Below are positions 2,042 to 29,904 of a DNA stretch of 64,000 nucleotides, in pieces; the first letter of the stretch is position 1, and the number at the start of each line of letters is the position of its first letter. The DNA comes from Hydrotalea sp. (GTDB taxonomy: Bacteria; Bacteroidota; Bacteroidia; Chitinophagales; Chitinophagaceae): assembly GCA_027364735.1 (NCBI GenBank), contig DAHXOT010000044.1:1-64000 (forward strand), in the 5' to 3' direction. The notes beneath the pieces were generated by a model, which searched no databases, was not told the origin of the DNA, and was given only the letters and a program-made list of their open reading frames with translations. The translations under genes and the position numbers were made by a program.

Positions 2042-3532
2042 TTATTTAAGAATCATCAATACTTTATTCATAATAGTATTTGTTCCCGAACCAATTAAAT
2101 CGTTTAACCAAAATGGTGCAATACCAATAACAACAATAGCGATGATTAATAATGCAGCAGCAAATTTTTCATTCCATCTTGCATCGGTTAATTGATTGTA
2201 TTGTTCATTTGTAACAGGCCCCATTATTGCTTGTCCTGCAGCTCTTAAAATATATACTGCCGTAACTACAATAGAAGCACAAGCTAAAATGGTAGCCACC
2301 CGATACATAGTATCGGCATTTTGCCAAGAGCCCATAAATACCGTCATTTCTGCAACAAATCCGCTAAAGCCCGGTAAACCTAAAGAGGTTAAACCGGCAA
2401 TCATAAATACAGTTGAAATAAAAGGCATTACTTTTAACATGCCTCCTAATTGATCTACCATTCTTGTATGTGCTCTGCTGTATATCATTCCAATGGCAGC
2501 GAAGAAAAGGGCAGTCATTAATCCGTGCGATACCATTTGCATTACAGCACCATTAATAGATGTTCTTGTTAGCATGCCTATTCCAAACAAAACAAAACCG
2601 GTATGACTAACTGATGAATATGCATTGATATATTTTAAATCTTTCTGCATCATGGTAGCGAATGCGCCATAAATAATTCCGATAGTGGATAATAAAATGA
2701 TGATCCATTGATACTCGTGTGCAGCATCGGGCATTAAATAAGTAGCCACACGCAAACATCCGTACCCACCTAATTTCATAGATATTCCGGCTAAAAACAT
2801 GGATGCTGCCGTTGGTGCTGAAGAATGCCCATCGGGCACCCAAGTATGAAATGGAAATAATGCTGTAAAAATTCCGAAACCAATAAATAAGAATGGAAAA
2901 AATATTTTTTGCGTTAATAAAGGAATATTGGCTTGTGCAATAGCCAATAAATCGAATGATTGATTATTGGAAAATGTGTAATAATACACACCGGCAAGAC
3001 CAACAAAAATTAATGCAGAACCACCCATTAACATTAATGCCAACTTCATGGCACTGTATTCCTTTTTACCACTACCCCAAATACCAATTAATAAAAATTT
3101 AGGAATTACGGCAACTTCTAAAAAGAAGAACATGGTAAATAAATCGAGCGAAATAAAAAACCCATACGCACCTAAGCTTAAGAAAATAAGCAGAAAGAAA
3201 AATTCTTTACTTAATGTTTCTTGTGCCCACGATACCAACACACCAGCAACAACCACCAAAGAAGTTAATAAAATCATGGCTACAGAAATACCATCAACCC
3301 CAACATGATAATGAATATTTAAACTATCGAACCAATTATAATCGTATTGAAACAACATTGGTGCAGTGTTGCTGGCTCTTTCTTTCAGGTATTGAAATAA
3401 CAGATTAAATACCAAAGCCAATTGCAATAACGAACCTGCCAATGCAACTGTACGCACTTGCTTTAATCCTTTTACAAACAATATTATTATTGCTGTTATT
3501 AAAGGTAAGATGATAAGAAACGATAAATTCAT
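2042..3532 (-). CDS. nuoM: NADH-quinone oxidoreductase subunit M
   Basis: Second antiporter-like proton-pumping subunit of complex I, 496 residues, polytopic. Family motifs are visible: HYHVGVDGISVAMILLTSL near residue 75, FHTWVPDGHSSAPTAASMFL near 225 (the conserved HxW..D.H loop), and the LGLPGFSGFVAE segment near 390. The gene follows a four-helix-bundle gene rather than nuoL directly. The 3 bp before its ATG abut a 7-bp repeat array at 3536-3570, so its translation start region consists of that repeat. Confidence 0.96.
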   Translation of the reverse strand: MNLSFLIILPLITAIIILFVKGLKQVRTVALAGSLLQLALVFNLLFQYLKERASNTAPMLFQYDYNWFDSLNIHYHVGVDGISVAMILLTSLVVVAGVLVSWAQETLSKEFFFLLIFLSLGAYGFFISLDLFTMFFFLEVAVIPKFLLIGIWGSGKKEYSAMKLALMLMGGSALIFVGLAGVYYYTFSNNQSFDLLAIAQANIPLLTQKIFFPFLFIGFGIFTALFPFHTWVPDGHSSAPTAASMFLAGISMKLGGYGCLRVATYLMPDAAHEYQWIIILLSTIGIIYGAFATMMQKDLKYINAYSSVSHTGFVLFGIGMLTRTSINGAVMQMVSHGLMTALFFAAIGMIYSRAHTRMVDQLGGMLKVMPFISTVFMIAGLTSLGLPGFSGFVAEMTVFMGSWQNADTMYRVATILACASIVVTAVYILRAAGQAIMGPVTNEQYNQLTDARWNEKFAAALLIIAIVVIGIAPFWLNDLIGSGTNTIMNKVLMILK

Positions 3533-3535
3533 TTT

Positions 3536-3570
3536 ATGAGTTATAAGTTATGGGTTATGAATTATGAGTT
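3536..3570. repeat. Heptamer array, nuoM side of the first S23-type cassette
   Basis: Five tandem units of ATRAGTT type (ATGAGTT, ATAAGTT, ATGGGTT, ATGAATT, ATGAGTT), the same 7-bp family as AAGTnnT in another phase. The array ends 3 bp before the nuoM ATG and contains the stop codon of the four-helix-bundle gene (3555-3557). It is inverted relative to the array at 3930-3964: both ends carry the same 7-bp ATGGGTT unit, in opposite orientation. Confidence 0.85.
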
Positions 3571-3920
3571 TGTTTTGAAGTAAGAATAGCACTTCTCAAC
3601 ATTTTTAATAATCCATTTCCTTCGTTAAATAATTTTTCAAATTTTTCTACAGTTAAATAATTTGTTGCTTTTAATAATTCAAGCCAATAAATTGTTTCGT
3701 CACATTCTTTCTGAGCTATTGCCAACTTGTGAATAAAATCAGCTTTGCTTTCTGCATTTTGAGCTTCTTTTATTAAAGCACCTACTGCTGTTCCACTTCT
3801 CAAAAGCTGTTTACTCATCACATATTCTTTCTTGTCTTCAGCCAGATATTTATAAACATTAATGACAGAAATTGCAAACTCAAAACTCTTATCTACCAAT
3901 ATTCCTTTTTTCATAGTCAT
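3555..3920 (-). CDS. Four-helix-bundle protein (S23 / 23S rRNA IVS-type family), copy 1
   Basis: A small helical protein of the S23 (TIGR02436-like) family, which forms oligomeric four-helix bundles. Known relatives are encoded in intervening sequences of some 23S rRNAs and, as Avd, beside diversity-generating reverse transcriptases; most have no known role. Family features here are the SKQLLRSGTAVGALIKEAQNA core and DFIHKLAIAQKECDETIYWLELL. I start at ATG 3920 (MTMKKGILVDKSF, 121 residues) because the longer frame to 3953 begins inside the repeat array. The C-terminal tail and stop codon are encoded by the downstream array. The gene interrupts nuoL-nuoM but keeps operon direction. No reverse transcriptase or rRNA is nearby. 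Confidence 0.85.
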   Translation of the reverse strand: MTMKKGILVDKSFEFAISVINVYKYLAEDKKEYVMSKQLLRSGTAVGALIKEAQNAESKADFIHKLAIAQKECDETIYWLELLKATNYLTVEKFEKLFNEGNGLLKMLRSAILTSKQTHNS

Positions 3921-3929
3921 AAGGTTTTT

Positions 3930-3964
3930 AACCCATAACTCATCATTTATCATTCATCACTCTT
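3930..3964. repeat. Heptamer array, nuoL side of the first S23-type cassette (inverted)
   Basis: Units AACCCAT, AACTCAT, CATTTAT, CATTCAT and a partial CACTCTT read as the reverse complement of the array at 3536-3570. The array abuts the nuoL stop codon (3966-3968) and is the 5' leader of the four-helix-bundle gene. The two outer units (CATTCAT, CACTCTT) are the most degraded. Confidence 0.75.
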
Positions 3965-3965
3965 G

Positions 3966-5897
3966 TCACTTCCACACATAAATAAACAACACAGCCAACG
4001 CAACTATTCCACCAAAAAAATACAACGCATAATTTTGTACTTTACCCGATTGTACTCCTTTAATTAATTCAGAAATTTTTGCAGTAATGGTTGCTAATAA
4101 ATTCATACAACCATCCACAATATTTTTATCAATCCATGCTGCCGGTCTTCCAATTAAATTAAAAACTATTTTTTTGGTAATGAATAAATACAATTCATCA
4201 ATATAAAATTTTCTATACGCCGACCTGTACAATCCACCGAAAGTATTTGCAACAGCATCTGGTTTTGCATTTGCATTTTTATATAAAACAGTGGCCAACA
4301 AAATTCCCAACACACCAAATAAAACAGGAGCAGCAGAGAAGGCATAATTAATATGTGTTTCTAATGCAGCACCATCGGTTGTTACAAAATGCGAGAAAGG
4401 AATGAAACCTGCAACAGCAGCCATGATTCCTAAAATTATTAATGGCAATTTCATAGACCAAGTTCCTTCGCCATGATGATGACTATGTACATGAGCTTCT
4501 TTGCTCCAGAAAATTGAATAATATAATCGGAACATATAAAAAGCGGTTAGTCCGGATGTAAATAATGCCACACCGTACACCAATTTGTTGGCGTTAAATG
4601 CGGCCAATAAAATTTCTTCTTTACTAAAAAATCCTGCAAATGGCGGAATGCCTGCAATAGCTAAACAAGCAATTAAAAATGAAAAATGTGTGATGGGCAT
4701 TAGCTTTCTTAACCCACCCATATCTTTCATATCGTTGCTATGAACCAAATGAATAACAGCACCTGCACCAAGAAATAACAACGATTTAAAAAATGCATGT
4801 GTAAATAAATGGAACATAGAGCCCATATAACCCAAACCTTCTTCGCCACCTTGTTTTGCAACACCCAATGCAAACATCATATACCCAATTTGGCTCATGG
4901 TTGAATAGGCTAATACTCTTTTAATATCGGTTTGTGTGCAGGCAATAATAGCTGCAATAAATGCAGAAGCCAATCCAACATACGTTACAATTTGCAATGC
5001 AAATTCATCAACAGAAAATATGGGAAATAATCTTGCAACTAAATACACACCGGCAACCACCATGGTGGCAGCATGTATTAATGCAGAAACAGGTGTTGGA
5101 CCTTCCATAGCATCGGGCAACCAAATATGCAAAGGAAACATAGCAGACTTTCCGGCACCACCAATAAATACCAGTGTTAAACCCCAAGTTAAAACAGATG
5201 CTCCTACAAATGTTGCGGAGGAAATGCCTAAAAAATAGGTAGACTGTGTATCGGTTAATCTTGTAATTAATGTTTCAAAGTCTAATGTTTGTGCGTAGAA
5301 TGATAAAATTAAAATACCAATCAAAAATCCTAAATCGGCAAAACGTGTAACAATGAATGCTTTTTTAGAAGCCGCTACAGCCGATGGTTTATCGTAATAA
5401 TATCCAATTAATAAATAAGATGAAACACCAACCAATTCCCAGAACATGTATATCTGAAAGATATTGGTTGAAATAACTAATCCCAACATTGAAAAAGTAA
5501 ATAAAGAAAGAAATGCATAATAAGTTGCAAATCGTTCTTCACCTTTCATATATCCTAAACTAAAAATATGCACCATTAAAGAAACAAAGCTTACCACCAC
5601 CAACATCATTACAGAAATGGGATCGAGAATAATTCCCAGATCAATAGAAACGTTTGGTGAAAATTGTAACCATGTATATTGTAATGCAATTATTTTTTGA
5701 TATACCCCATTTACTTTTCCATCAATAAAAAAATAATAGTAGGCTGTTTGTAATGATAATAAAGCGGTTATTAACAAAGCCGTTACACCTATTACTCCGG
5801 AAAATGATTTAAAATATTTTCTGCCAAATAAACCAAGTATCACAAAAGTTGCTAAAGGCAACAATGGAATTAATGCTATGTAAGAATAATGATTCAT
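3966..5897 (-). CDS. nuoL: NADH-quinone oxidoreductase subunit L
   Basis: Largest antiporter-like subunit of complex I, 643 residues, with the extra C-terminal helices that carry the long lateral helix. Motifs include FWELVGVSSYLLIGYYY near 130, FPLHIWLPDAMEGPTPVSAL near 255-275 and GIPPFAGFFSKEEIL near 425. A His-rich loop (AHVHSHHHGEG) near 470 is common in this subunit. The 58-bp gap to nuoK holds a GC-richer hairpin. The gap to nuoM has been widened by a four-helix-bundle gene with its repeats. Confidence 0.97.
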   Translation of the reverse strand: MNHYSYIALIPLLPLATFVILGLFGRKYFKSFSGVIGVTALLITALLSLQTAYYYFFIDGKVNGVYQKIIALQYTWLQFSPNVSIDLGIILDPISVMMLVVVSFVSLMVHIFSLGYMKGEERFATYYAFLSLFTFSMLGLVISTNIFQIYMFWELVGVSSYLLIGYYYDKPSAVAASKKAFIVTRFADLGFLIGILILSFYAQTLDFETLITRLTDTQSTYFLGISSATFVGASVLTWGLTLVFIGGAGKSAMFPLHIWLPDAMEGPTPVSALIHAATMVVAGVYLVARLFPIFSVDEFALQIVTYVGLASAFIAAIIACTQTDIKRVLAYSTMSQIGYMMFALGVAKQGGEEGLGYMGSMFHLFTHAFFKSLLFLGAGAVIHLVHSNDMKDMGGLRKLMPITHFSFLIACLAIAGIPPFAGFFSKEEILLAAFNANKLVYGVALFTSGLTAFYMFRLYYSIFWSKEAHVHSHHHGEGTWSMKLPLIILGIMAAVAGFIPFSHFVTTDGAALETHINYAFSAAPVLFGVLGILLATVLYKNANAKPDAVANTFGGLYRSAYRKFYIDELYLFITKKIVFNLIGRPAAWIDKNIVDGCMNLLATITAKISELIKGVQSGKVQNYALYFFGGIVALAVLFIYVWK

Positions 5898-8448: not shown

Positions 8449-8453
8449 TTTTT

Positions 8454-8533
8454 ACGTTATAAGTTTTAAGTTTTAGGTTCTAAGTATTATTATAAGAAGA
8501 TGCGTTTTCACTCACTACTTATAATTGGTACTT
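8454..8533. repeat. Inverted heptamer arrays without an enclosed gene (nuoD-nuoH junction)
   Basis: Plus-strand units ACGTTAT, AAGTTTT, AAGTTTT, AGGTTCT and AAGTATT (8454-8488) lie just upstream of the nuoH start. A degraded inverted stretch (about 8510-8533, containing ACTTAT and ACTTACA) faces it across roughly 20 bp. The layout matches the two cassettes that enclose four-helix-bundle genes, with the gene missing. The inverted side is irregular (one 13-bp step where 14 is expected), so its assignment is weaker. Confidence 0.6.
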
Positions 8534-8543
8534 ACAACAATTG

Positions 8544-27337: not shown

Positions 27338-28318
27338 ATGAAAAAGATAAAAGCAGGAATTATAGGCGGTGCGGGTTATACCGGAGGAGAATTAATTAGG
27401 CTACTAATTAATCATTCACAAGTAAATATTTTATTCATTAATAGTACCAGCAATGCCGGAAATTATATAAGCAAGGTTCATACAGATTTGCTTGGCGAAA
27501 CCGAATTAAAATTTACAACAGAATTAAGCAACGATATTGATGTTTTGTTTTTATGCGTTGCACATGGTGAAGCAAGAAAATTTTTGGAAGCTAACGCTAT
27601 TGATGAAAAAATAAAGATCATTGATTTATCGCAAGATTTCAGATTACATCATACATCTAACATCGGACATCGAACATTTGTTTATGGTCTTCCTGAATTA
27701 AATAAAGCAGCAATTCAAACAGCAAAAAATATTGCAAACCCAGGTTGTTTTGCAACAGCCATTCAATTGGGATTATTGCCTATGGCAAATGCAGGTGTGC
27801 TGGGAGATGTATATACCACGGGCATTACAGGCAGTACAGGTGCAGGACAAAGTTTAAACAACACATCGCACTATAGTTGGAGAGCCAACAATATTTCTGC
27901 TTATAAAACTTTGCAACATCAGCATATTAATGAAATACATCAAAGCCTAATTCAGTTACAAGATAATGATGGATTGCATGTTCATTTTGTTCCATGGCGT
28001 GGCAATTTTACCAGAGGCATTTATGTTACATCAATTGTTGATACTTCATTACCATTAGAAGAAGTAATACAAATTTTTAAAGAATATTATAAAGATGCAG
28101 CATTCACACATGTTAGTGATACAATGGTAGATCTGAAGCAAGTAGTGAATACTAATAAATGTTTTATTCATATTGAAAAACAAGGCAACAAAATTGCTAT
28201 TCATTCGGCAATAGATAATTTGCTGAAAGGCGCATCGGGCCAAGCTGTACAAAATATGAATTTATTATTTGGATTAGAAGAAACAACAGGTTTAAAATTA
28301 AAATCGGTAGGATTTTAA
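27338..28318 (+). CDS. argC: N-acyl-gamma-glutamyl-phosphate reductase
   Basis: NADPH-dependent reduction of N-acylglutamyl phosphate to the semialdehyde. The nucleotide loop IIGGAGYTGGELIRLLINH, the catalytic Cys in NPGCFATAIQLGLLP (near 132) and GSTGAGQSLNN are visible. 326 residues. The TAA stop overlaps the first unit of a 7-bp repeat array, so the final residues (KLKSVGF) are set by that junction. Confidence 0.95.
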   Translation: MKKIKAGIIGGAGYTGGELIRLLINHSQVNILFINSTSNAGNYISKVHTDLLGETELKFTTELSNDIDVLFLCVAHGEARKFLEANAIDEKIKIIDLSQDFRLHHTSNIGHRTFVYGLPELNKAAIQTAKNIANPGCFATAIQLGLLPMANAGVLGDVYTTGITGSTGAGQSLNNTSHYSWRANNISAYKTLQHQHINEIHQSLIQLQDNDGLHVHFVPWRGNFTRGIYVTSIVDTSLPLEEVIQIFKEYYKDAAFTHVSDTMVDLKQVVNTNKCFIHIEKQGNKIAIHSAIDNLLKGASGQAVQNMNLLFGLEETTGLKLKSVGF

Positions 28319-28341
28319 GTTGTAAGTATTAAGTAATAAGT
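28317..28341. repeat. Heptamer array, argC side of the second S23-type cassette
   Basis: Units AAGTTGT, AAGTATT, AAGTAAT and a partial AAGT fill the gap from the argC stop to the ATG of the four-helix-bundle gene. The 25 bp are identical to 547-571 at the nuoN end. Confidence 0.85.
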
Positions 28342-28653
28342 ATGCAGAACTATAAAGATTTAAAAGTTTGGGAAAAAGCACATCTCTTTACATTGAATGT
28401 ATATGAGGCGACAAAATTATTTCTTAAAGAAGAACTTTACAACTTAACAAATCAACTGCGAAGATCCGCATCTTCTATTCCTGCAAATGTTGTAGAAGGA
28501 TGTGGTAAAAACACAAATGCTGAGTTTGCTCATTTCTTAAATATTGCTTTGGGTTCTGCTAATGAAGCTGAATACTTTTTGATACTTATTAAAGATCTAA
28601 ATTATTTAACAGAAGAAAAATTTCATTCTCTAACAATATTATTAATGAAGTAA
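28342..28653 (+). CDS. Four-helix-bundle protein (S23 / IVS-type family), copy 2, frameshifted
   Basis: A canonical S23-family protein: YKDLKVWEKAHLFTLNVY, LTNQLRRSASSIPANVVEG and EFAHFLNIALGSANEAEYFL are all diagnostic. It reads in the direction of the arginine operon between argC and argD. The frame ends early at 28653 (103 residues). Re-reading one base near 28635 restores a typical tail (NIINEVKGMLITLITKVR...) that runs to a TAA at 28704-28706, giving 121 residues, the same length as copy 1. So a single base appears lost, by mutation or sequencing error. It shares little sequence with copy 1 and belongs to another subfamily. Confidence 0.8.
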   Translation: MQNYKDLKVWEKAHLFTLNVYEATKLFLKEELYNLTNQLRRSASSIPANVVEGCGKNTNAEFAHFLNIALGSANEAEYFLILIKDLNYLTEEKFHSLTILLMK

Positions 28654-28696: not shown

Positions 28697-28727
28697 AACT
28701 ACTTAAAACTTACTACTTAAAACTTAT
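28697..28727. repeat. Heptamer array, argD side of the second S23-type cassette (inverted)
   Basis: Four units on the reverse strand (AAGTTTT, AAGTAGT, AAGTTTT, AAGTAGT) are inverted relative to 28317-28341. The array contains the restored stop codon of the four-helix-bundle gene, and its edge supplies the bases directly before and within the argD ATG (28726). Confidence 0.85.
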
Positions 28728-29904
28728 GAATTTATTTAACGTTTATCCGCTTAACAACATCACCATTACAAAAGCACAAGGAAGTTATGTATGGGACGAA
28801 AATGGTGTGCAGTATTTAGATATGTATGGTGGTCATGCAGTAATTAGCATTGGTCATACACATCCGCATTGGGTAAAAAGAATTGAAGACCAATTAGAAA
28901 AAATTGGATTTTATTCTAACTCTGTAATCATTCCAATTCAACAACAATTAGCCGAGAAATTAGGAAAGATAAGTGGAAAAGAAGATTACCAATTATTCCT
29001 CTGCAACAGTGGCGCAGAAGCCAATGAAAACGCATTAAAGCTCGCATCATTTCATACGGGAAGAAAAAAAATTGTGGCTTTTTCAAAATCATTTCATGGA
29101 AGAACTTCTTTAGCCGTTGCAGCAACCGATAACAAATCGATAGTGGCACCCGTAAATGAAACCGACAATGTAACCTTTCTTCCGTTTAACGATGAAAAAG
29201 CATTGCAACAATATTTTAATAATTTCGGTGAAGAAGTAGCTGCAGTAATTGTTGAGGGAATTCAGGGTGTTGGCGGTATTAATATTGCTAACGAATCTTT
29301 CTTGCAATTAATAAGAAAACTGTGTACTCAATATAATTGCATTTACATTGCCGATAGTGTACAATGTGGTTATGGAAGAAGCGGAAAATTTTTCTCTCAC
29401 GATTATGCCGGTGTTAATGCCGATATTTATACCATGGCAAAAGGTATGGGCAATGGGTTTCCTATTGGCGGTATTTTAATTGCCTCGCATATTAAACCTA
29501 AGTACGGATTATTAGGAACAACATTTGGCGGTAACCACTTAGCATGTGCTGCTGCTTTAGCTGTATTAGAAGTAATAGAAAAAGAAAATTTAATTGAAAT
29601 GGCTAAACAACGCGGTATGTATTTAATGAATAAATTAAAAGCAATTGATGCCATTAAAAATGTACGTGGTAAGGGTTTGATGATTGGTTTTGATGTTCCC
29701 GAAACAATAAAAGATTTAAAAAATAAATTACTATTCAACTATAATGTTTTTACCGGCGAAGCAAAACCAAATGTAATACGGTTGCTGCCTTCGTTGGCCA
29801 TTACCAGAAAACAAGCTGATGAATTTTTGGAAGCATTGAATGAAGCAATTGCAGAACTAAAAACAACAACTCTTAAAGAAAAAGTGGAAAAAGTTGCTGA
29901 ATAA
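28726..29904 (+). CDS. argD: N-acylornithine aminotransferase
   Basis: PLP-dependent class-III aminotransferase that converts N-acylglutamate semialdehyde to N-acylornithine. GGHAVISIGHTHPHWV, the LCNSGAEANENALKLA motif and the Schiff-base Lys in DIYTMAKGMGNGFPIGG (near 241) are visible. 392 residues. Its start codon is fused to the edge of the heptamer array. The acyl group (acetyl or succinyl) is not decided by the sequence. Confidence 0.93.
   Translation: MNLFNVYPLNNITITKAQGSYVWDENGVQYLDMYGGHAVISIGHTHPHWVKRIEDQLEKIGFYSNSVIIPIQQQLAEKLGKISGKEDYQLFLCNSGAEANENALKLASFHTGRKKIVAFSKSFHGRTSLAVAATDNKSIVAPVNETDNVTFLPFNDEKALQQYFNNFGEEVAAVIVEGIQGVGGINIANESFLQLIRKLCTQYNCIYIADSVQCGYGRSGKFFSHDYAGVNADIYTMAKGMGNGFPIGGILIASHIKPKYGLLGTTFGGNHLACAAALAVLEVIEKENLIEMAKQRGMYLMNKLKAIDAIKNVRGKGLMIGFDVPETIKDLKNKLLFNYNVFTGEAKPNVIRLLPSLAITRKQADEFLEALNEAIAELKTTTLKEKVEKVAE

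What the first reader, a model, noticed from the sequence alone, without database searches (positions are those of the whole stretch)
3536..3964. An S23-type four-helix-bundle gene bracketed by inverted 7-bp-repeat arrays, inserted in the complex I operon
Seen directly: a 121-residue four-helix-bundle gene separates nuoL and nuoM and is flanked by two arrays of a 7-bp unit in inverted orientation (3536-3570 and 3930-3964). The arrays reach within 2-3 bp of the nuoL stop and the nuoM start, and the downstream array encodes the gene's tail and stop. Known: S23-family proteins occur in rRNA intervening sequences and as Avd in retroelements, mostly with no known role. Inference: gene plus arrays is one mobile or once-mobile unit of a kind I do not recognise. 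It carries no transposase, enters operons in the direction of transcription and does not break them.
Basis: partly seen in the sequence, partly recalled or inferred. Interest (0 to 1): 0.88.

Follow-up and report, generated by a model that had tools for sequence, protein, structure and literature searches.

The report
S23 gene between matching heptamer arms
A small gene of unknown function (the S23 family) sits between two mirror-image arrays of a 7-base repeat, and this proves to be a general rule: across many bacteria S23 genes are framed by such arms, gene and arms travel together to new places in genomes, and genomes without the gene almost lack such arrays.

Summary
Window 3555-3953(-) is an S23/PF05635 gene between nuoL and nuoM, bracketed by inverted period-7 arrays. 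It is one case of a broad, apparently undescribed rule. In 196 tested S23 loci (117 from the window's family, 79 from across Bacteroidota and a few other phyla) about 83% have matching inverted arms, mostly of 7-bp units (mismatched flanks 4-9%). Units differ between elements but match between the two arms. Unit similarity follows the S23 protein, not the site. The same junction can carry unrelated elements in congeners with 81-87% identical flanks. The upstream arm is G-rich whatever the host strand. At nuoL-nuoM ten genera have a bare 7-21 bp junction, two species the intact element, others array relics: decay removes the gene and leaves the arms. Twelve S23-free genomes gave 2 period-7 arrays in 584 kb; twelve S23-rich ones 61 in 600 kb, almost all without a gene nearby. 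Best reading: an IVS-like stem-loop element outside rRNA, organised like RAYT/REP but with a four-helix-bundle protein instead of a transposase. Gene plus arms as one unit is well supported; past mobility is likely; how it moves is unknown. No nucleotide-precise insertion/empty pair was found.

The parts
3929..3971 (-). upstream arm of the S23 element (G-rich on the gene's strand), degenerate period-7 array; core pairs with the other arm over 3929-3950
3555..3953 (-). S23 / PF05635 four-helix-bundle gene, 132 aa (121 aa from inner ATG at 3920)
3534..3570 (-). downstream arm (C-rich on the gene's strand), period-7 array that encodes the S23 stop and ends 2-3 bp before the nuoM start
3966..5897 (-). 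nuoL, host gene upstream of the element
   Evidence: tblastn to relatives
2042..3532 (-). nuoM, host gene downstream of the element
28313..28342 (+). upstream arm of a second S23 element, (AAGTNNT)n, running into the S23 start codon
28342..28653 (+). second S23 gene, between argC and argD; this copy ends early (profile 1-94 of 106), the congener's copy matches 1-105
28698..28737 (+). downstream arm of the second element, inverted units, abutting the argD start codon
540..577 (+). solo period-7 array (AAGTNNT unit) just upstream of the minus-strand gene 156-536, no S23 gene
8450..8537 (+). gene-less array (TTTAAGT-like unit) followed by a short weak inverted partner, in the gap between nuoH and the next nuo gene; relic candidate

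Best explanation
The feature is one copy of a widespread small genetic element: an S23-family gene of about 120 codons held between two inverted arrays of degenerate, mostly 7-bp units (median about 480 bp from arm to arm). Shown: gene and arms are inherited and relocated together; the unit differs between elements and follows the protein; the element has a polarity (G-rich arm before the gene); it sits in narrow gaps of operons, mostly co-directional; the gene decays by internal deletion and leaves its arms; genomes without S23 genes almost lack such arrays. Inferred: the arms form a stem-loop around the ORF (as RNA, or as DNA when single-stranded), the S23 protein (a pentameric ring in solved homologues) binds its own arms, and protein plus host replication or repair copies the hairpin into new intergenic gaps; gene-less hairpins are relics or non-autonomous followers. 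Functionally this works like RAYT/REP: one gene framed by its own repeats, many gene-less hairpins elsewhere. Anatomically it is an IVS outside rRNA. The enzymatic step of movement is not identified.
For: Inverted matching arms in 83% of 117 family loci (4.2% mismatched) and 84% of 79 loci across Bacteroidota and other phyla (8.5% mismatched); best arm period 7 in 66 and 8 in 11 of 86. Different-site pairs with protein similarity 0.7 or more share the unit in 69% (n=26) against 1% below 0.45 (n about 9,000); same-site pairs with protein similarity 0.30-0.60 share it in 6-16%; Mantel r 0.204 on different-site pairs, permutation maximum 0.124. Cassette swap: Chryseobacterium L199/L204 flanks 87% identical, S23 44%, arms unlike; Pedobacter L243/L255 81% / 47%. 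Bare nuoL-nuoM junction of 7-21 bp in ten genera. Relics keeping arms and scraps of the ORF. Upstream-arm GC skew +0.50 to +0.61, positive in 15 of 15 antisense or mixed loci. Arrays 2 per 584 kb in 12 S23-free genomes, 61 per 600 kb in 12 S23-rich ones; stretch-level test in 10 against 10 genomes p=0.002. Predicted RNA fold closes the ORF in a loop by the arms, argC-argD copy z=-2.9, nuoLM copy z=-1.6. RAYT genes of the same genomes are framed by G+C-rich REP-like palindromes with no period-7 array in 30 flanks.
Against: No nucleotide-precise full/empty pair. Many insertions are old: the argC-argD element is shared by over ten genera and the fad junction across families, so no copy is shown to be active today. 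The nuoLM copy folds only weakly better than shuffles. No G-U over A-C excess among arm mismatches (104 against 86, p=0.22), so no sign that the sense RNA stem is selected. Within-genome sharing of units among arrays is modest (8.5% against 3.5% between genomes), so gene-less hairpins are not simple recent copies of one master. No nuclease motif is known in the family.
Confidence: 0.62

Rival explanations
1. The arrays belong to the site or genome, not to the gene: slippage makes heptamer arrays in AT-rich gaps, and S23 genes settle in them or merely coexist.
For: Gene-less arrays outnumber S23 genes; heptamer arrays without any S23 link are described in Beggiatoaceae, Cyanobacteria and some Bacteroidetes (PMC4679880).
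Against: The unit follows the protein across unrelated sites and not the site; ten bare nuoL-nuoM junctions have no array; AT-rich S23-free stretches (GC 0.36-0.37) give 0, 0 and 1 arrays; both arms share one unit in inverted order with G-rich polarity tied to the gene.
Confidence: 0.12
2. A host-serving regulatory cassette inherited vertically: S23 protein binds its mRNA stem, or RNase III cuts it, to tune or insulate operon segments (nuo, arg, fad, sdh).
For: Strong co-direction with operons, 165 of 185; low dN/dS in three congeneric pairs, 0.11-0.20, on few changes; long retention at argC-argD; rRNA IVS stems are cut by RNase III (PMC4990558).
Against: Patchy presence, repeated decay and replacement by unrelated elements at one junction; hosts are functionally unrelated operons; bare junctions in many genera; no wobble-pair bias in the stem.
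Confidence: 0.15
3. A resident transposase or reverse transcriptase moves the cassette in trans: Y1/RAYT acting on hairpins, or an RT acting with S23 as an Avd-like partner.
For: S23 is related to Avd of diversity-generating retroelements (PMC10053308). Y1 count correlates with S23 count (Spearman 0.38; 0.37 after genome size).
Against: RT: present in 16 of 60 S23 genomes and 6 of 20 S23-free ones; several genomes with 12-16 S23 genes have none. Y1: 7 of 21 S23-rich genomes lack a strong hit, and RAYT genes carry their own, different REP-like palindromes.
Confidence: 0.1

Closest known systems
Intervening sequence (IVS) of 23S rRNA with S23 ORF (Coxiella, Leptospira)
   Same: Same protein family, same size (Coxiella 428-444 nt), ORF inside a stem of complementary border sequences, patchy presence, decaying ORF (PMC4990558).
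   Different: Here in protein-coding operons and gaps, not in rRNA helices; arms are arrays of short tandem units whose sequence differs from element to element.
RAYT (TnpA-REP, Y1 transposase) with REP/BIME palindromes
   Same: Single-copy protein gene framed by its own inverted repeats, with many gene-less hairpins of like type elsewhere, found only in genomes with the gene.
   Different: No HUH/Y1 protein; four-helix bundle instead; period-7 arrays, not G+C-rich palindromes. RAYTs of the same genomes have distinct REP-like flanks.
Intergenic TAACTGA heptamer arrays (Beggiatoaceae, Cyanobacteria, some Bacteroidetes) and STRR repeats
   Same: Degenerate 7-bp tandem units next to start codons, patchy distribution, suspected horizontal transfer.
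   Different: Described as direct repeats of one unit with no linked gene; here inverted pairs with many units and an S23 gene. The cited paper does not mention S23.
Foldback elements and MITEs
   Same: Inverted arms made of short tandem units, small non-coding derivatives.
   Different: Arms not conserved in sequence between copies; no transposase family to which they belong; no target duplication shown.
Avd of diversity-generating retroelements
   Same: Homologous four-helix bundle, pentamer.
   Different: No RT, template or variable repeat beside the S23 elements; RT absent from several S23-rich genomes.

Membership tests
S23 / 23S_rRNA_IVP protein family (PF05635, TIGR02436) | profile score above curated cut-off | tested here: met
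   95.8 bits (cut-off 33.8) and 100.9 bits (cut-off 24); phmmer to 2RLD E=1e-35
rRNA intervening sequence (IVS) | S23 ORF enclosed by complementary borders that form a stem, about 430 bp | tested here: met
rRNA intervening sequence (IVS) | located inside an rRNA gene | tested here: not met
   between nuoL and nuoM, argC and argD, and other protein genes
rRNA intervening sequence (IVS) | excised from the transcript by RNase III | not testable with these tools
   needs RNA
RAYT/REP system | Y1/HUH transposase gene within the element | tested here: not met
   only a PF05635 domain in the element
RAYT/REP system | gene-less repeats scattered in genomes that have the gene and rare in those without | tested here: met
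   61 arrays per 600 kb against 2 per 584 kb, 12 genomes each
TIR transposon / MITE | terminal inverted repeats | tested here: met
TIR transposon / MITE | arm sequence conserved within the family | tested here: not met
   units shared only between close relatives
TIR transposon / MITE | target-site duplication | tested here: inconclusive
   no close clean empty site; array edges blur the border
Diversity-generating retroelement (Avd) | reverse transcriptase with template and variable repeats | tested here: not met
   RT not associated with S23 across 80 genomes, absent in several S23-rich ones
TAACTGA-type heptamer arrays | direct tandem heptamers of one unit near start codons | tested here: inconclusive
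   solo array 540-577 and the downstream arms fit in place and period, but units vary and arms are inverted pairs; the published TAACTGA loci were not tested for S23

The most novel reading that the evidence does not exclude
S23-family four-helix-bundle proteins are a new class of mobility or hairpin-propagating factor: each recognises its own 7-bp-unit stem and spreads it, with or without its gene, through intergenic gaps, so that a large unexplained protein family and the scattered heptamer arrays of bacterial genomes are two faces of one selfish system that needs no transposase, recombinase or reverse transcriptase.
Probability: 0.35. Interest if true: 0.93.

Novelty: new variant of a known kind. 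Interest (0 to 1): 0.8.

Why it matters
PF05635/TIGR02436 is a large family annotated only as 'four helix bundle protein' and noted mainly as an rRNA curiosity. The rule found here gives it a defining genomic context, shows that it relocates together with its arms, and offers an origin for heptamer arrays reported for decades without a linked gene. It makes direct tests possible: binding of S23 to its own arms, and movement of a marked cassette. It also shows operon junctions as recurrent landing sites, relevant to how operons gain and lose spacers.

Tried and rejected
Reverse transcriptase as partner: no association. Y1/RAYT as mover: weak correlation of counts, but RAYT flanks are REP-like with no period-7 array. 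RNA-level selection on the stem by G-U against A-C mismatches: no difference, p=0.22. Arms as strict in-register inverted copies: only 31% of 73 arrays beat every unit permutation, and the test is biased by trimming; arms share a unit, only some share the order. Clean empty site in the one congener: both sites tested were decayed elements. Empty sites in 396 family genomes for eight sites: one array-free congeneric site (G109), but with an unlike spacer, so no exact border; one gene-less hairpin (G311) and two relics. Congener search around G056: single-species genus. First conserved-stretch query A1 was too divergent for the search for related loci. Chryseobacterium-wide site scan was not possible because the centre must be a G handle. 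An early flank test missed same-site pairs when arrays were long; replaced by ORF-based comparison. Literature: eight full-text searches found no paper linking S23 genes to heptamer arrays; only open-licence papers are held.

Full report
OBSERVATION. The window (contig 43 of a 2.77-Mb draft) carries nuoL 3966-5897(-), an S23 gene 3555-3953(-) and nuoM 2042-3532(-). The gene is PF05635/TIGR02436 and close to the solved protein 2RLD. Inverted arms of 22 nt, 82% complementary, lie at 3536-3557 and 3929-3950 inside period-7 arrays. The S23 stop codon and last residues lie in the downstream array, which ends 2-3 bp from the nuoM start. A Markov null of 403 kb gave no array of this score where the genome gave nine.

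GENERALITY. The genome has four S23 genes and its only held congener (G001) five. All seven distinct elements have inverted arrays, each with its own unit: GAGTTAT at nuoL-nuoM, AAGTNNT at argC-argD, GATGTCT, GAGCTAC, and 8-9 bp units at others (read by eye). In the window's family 60 of 80 genomes carry 0-16 copies each. Of 117 elements 83% have an upstream flank that matches the reverse complement of its own downstream flank with a local score of 15 or more, against 4.2% for flanks of different elements. The best period of the arms is 7 in 66 of 86 and 8 in 11. In 79 loci from other Bacteroidota and from an acidobacterial, an ignavibacterial, a peregrinibacterial, a KSB1 and a Lambdaproteobacteria record the figures are 84% and 8.5%.

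ONE UNIT. Unit similarity follows the protein. Pairs of elements whose flanking genes are unrelated share a unit in 69% of cases when the proteins are similar (0.7 or more, n=26) and in 1% when they are not (below 0.45, n about 9,000); pairs at the same site with dissimilar proteins (0.30-0.60) share it in only 6-16% (earlier forms). A Mantel test on different-site pairs gives r=0.204, permutation maximum 0.124 of 1000. At a fad-operon junction two Chryseobacterium species have 87% identical flanks but S23 proteins only 44% identical with unlike arms, while Kaistella shares the protein of one of them at 81%; two Pedobacter species show the same (81% flanks, 47% S23). So gene and both arms are exchanged together. 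The upstream arm is G-rich on the gene's strand (mean skew +0.54, coding background +0.07), also in 15 of 15 elements that lie antisense to one or both neighbours, so polarity belongs to the element.

INSERTION AND DECAY. At nuoL-nuoM ten genera have 7-21 bp between stop and start, the window's genus 433 bp with the gene, and several genera array-only gaps with other units. The gap in G073 keeps an S23 C-terminal scrap, RSTILTSK (window RSAILTSK), plus the 3' array. The two sites that are full in G001 but not in G000 are 94-96% identical in the flanks and show internal deletions: arms and shreds of the ORF remain, and one array has lost exactly one 7-bp unit. The same is seen at the L067 site (G305, G231) and as a gene-less hairpin at the L023 site in G311; G109 is array-free at that site. 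Eight of 118 copies have in-frame stops, while three congeneric pairs show dN/dS of 0.11-0.20 on few changes: kept for long, then lost.

GENOME-WIDE LINK. Period-7 arrays (score 12 or more): S23-free genomes G016 and G020, 0 and 1 in 184 and 200 kb; G029 and G006 (14 S23 genes each), 20 and 12 in 200 kb each. One 20-kb stretch from each of ten further S23-free genomes gave 1 array in total, from ten S23-rich genomes 29 (Mann-Whitney p=0.002); only one stretch from the S23-rich genomes held an S23 gene. In sum 2 in 584 kb against 61 in 600 kb, about 100 per Mb where S23 genes are two to four per Mb. About a third of array loci have a close inverted partner (19 of 58, control 3.5%), and units are only modestly shared within a genome. 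The gene-less arrays are therefore linked to S23 carriage, but whether they are relics, followers or formed in place is open. Phylogenetic non-independence was not corrected, though each of the 24 genomes is from a different genus.

MECHANISM. Shown: unit, insertion, decay, polarity, linkage. Inferred: the arms pair (predicted RNA fold closes the ORF in a loop; z=-2.9 at argC-argD, only -1.6 at nuoL-nuoM), S23 binds them, and the hairpin is copied into gaps. The bias to co-direction (165 of 185) is explained most simply by lack of an own promoter: only read-through copies express S23 and persist. The lack of a G-U bias speaks for pairing at DNA level or for weak RNA constraint. RT is not needed; Y1/RAYT genes have their own REP-like flanks, which makes them both a negative control and the nearest functional parallel.

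KNOWN. rRNA IVS: same gene, same stem-loop, same size, cut by RNase III (PMC4990558). TAACTGA heptamers: same kind of array, no gene known (PMC4679880). S23 is related to Avd (PMC10053308). I found no paper that joins the two subjects in the open literature held.

VERDICT. Real and general; a new variant of the IVS kind, with a RAYT/REP-like way of life; the mover is unidentified.

Noticed in passing
window 28342-28653: The argC-argD S23 copy ends early compared with the congener's full-length copy (profile 1-94 against 1-105); remaining codons appear to continue in another frame. Looks like the start of decay.
   Followed up: partly
window 27634-27677: A period-7 array lies inside the argC reading frame, in the variable loop before YGLPEL.
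   Followed up: no
L057:170-236: A gene-less heptamer hairpin (AGTTTAC/GAAGTTT units) sits between two tRNA genes of the same genome.
   Followed up: no
L236, L261, L205, L255: In a GAGATNT-unit family of Sphingobacteriales-like genomes each gap beside the S23 gene can carry its own G-array plus C-array hairpin, giving composite elements.
   Followed up: partly
L175 (G022), nuoL-nuoM gap of 418 bp: Another small ORF (130 aa, MNNLQLQNAIHQ...) unrelated to S23 fills the same nuoL-nuoM junction.
   Followed up: no
L361-L390: RAYT-like Y1 genes in this family are framed by G+C-rich REP-like palindromes; Y1 and S23 copy numbers correlate across 80 genomes (partial r 0.37 given genome size).
   Followed up: partly
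plasmid hits: S23 genes occur on plasmids of Nostoc, Calothrix and Riemerella and, on eleven viral contigs; their arms were not examined.
   Followed up: no
PMC10910872, figure legend: A CRISPR-association survey lists 23S rRNA IVP among novel array-associated proteins; short tandem arrays beside S23 might contribute to such calls.
   Followed up: no
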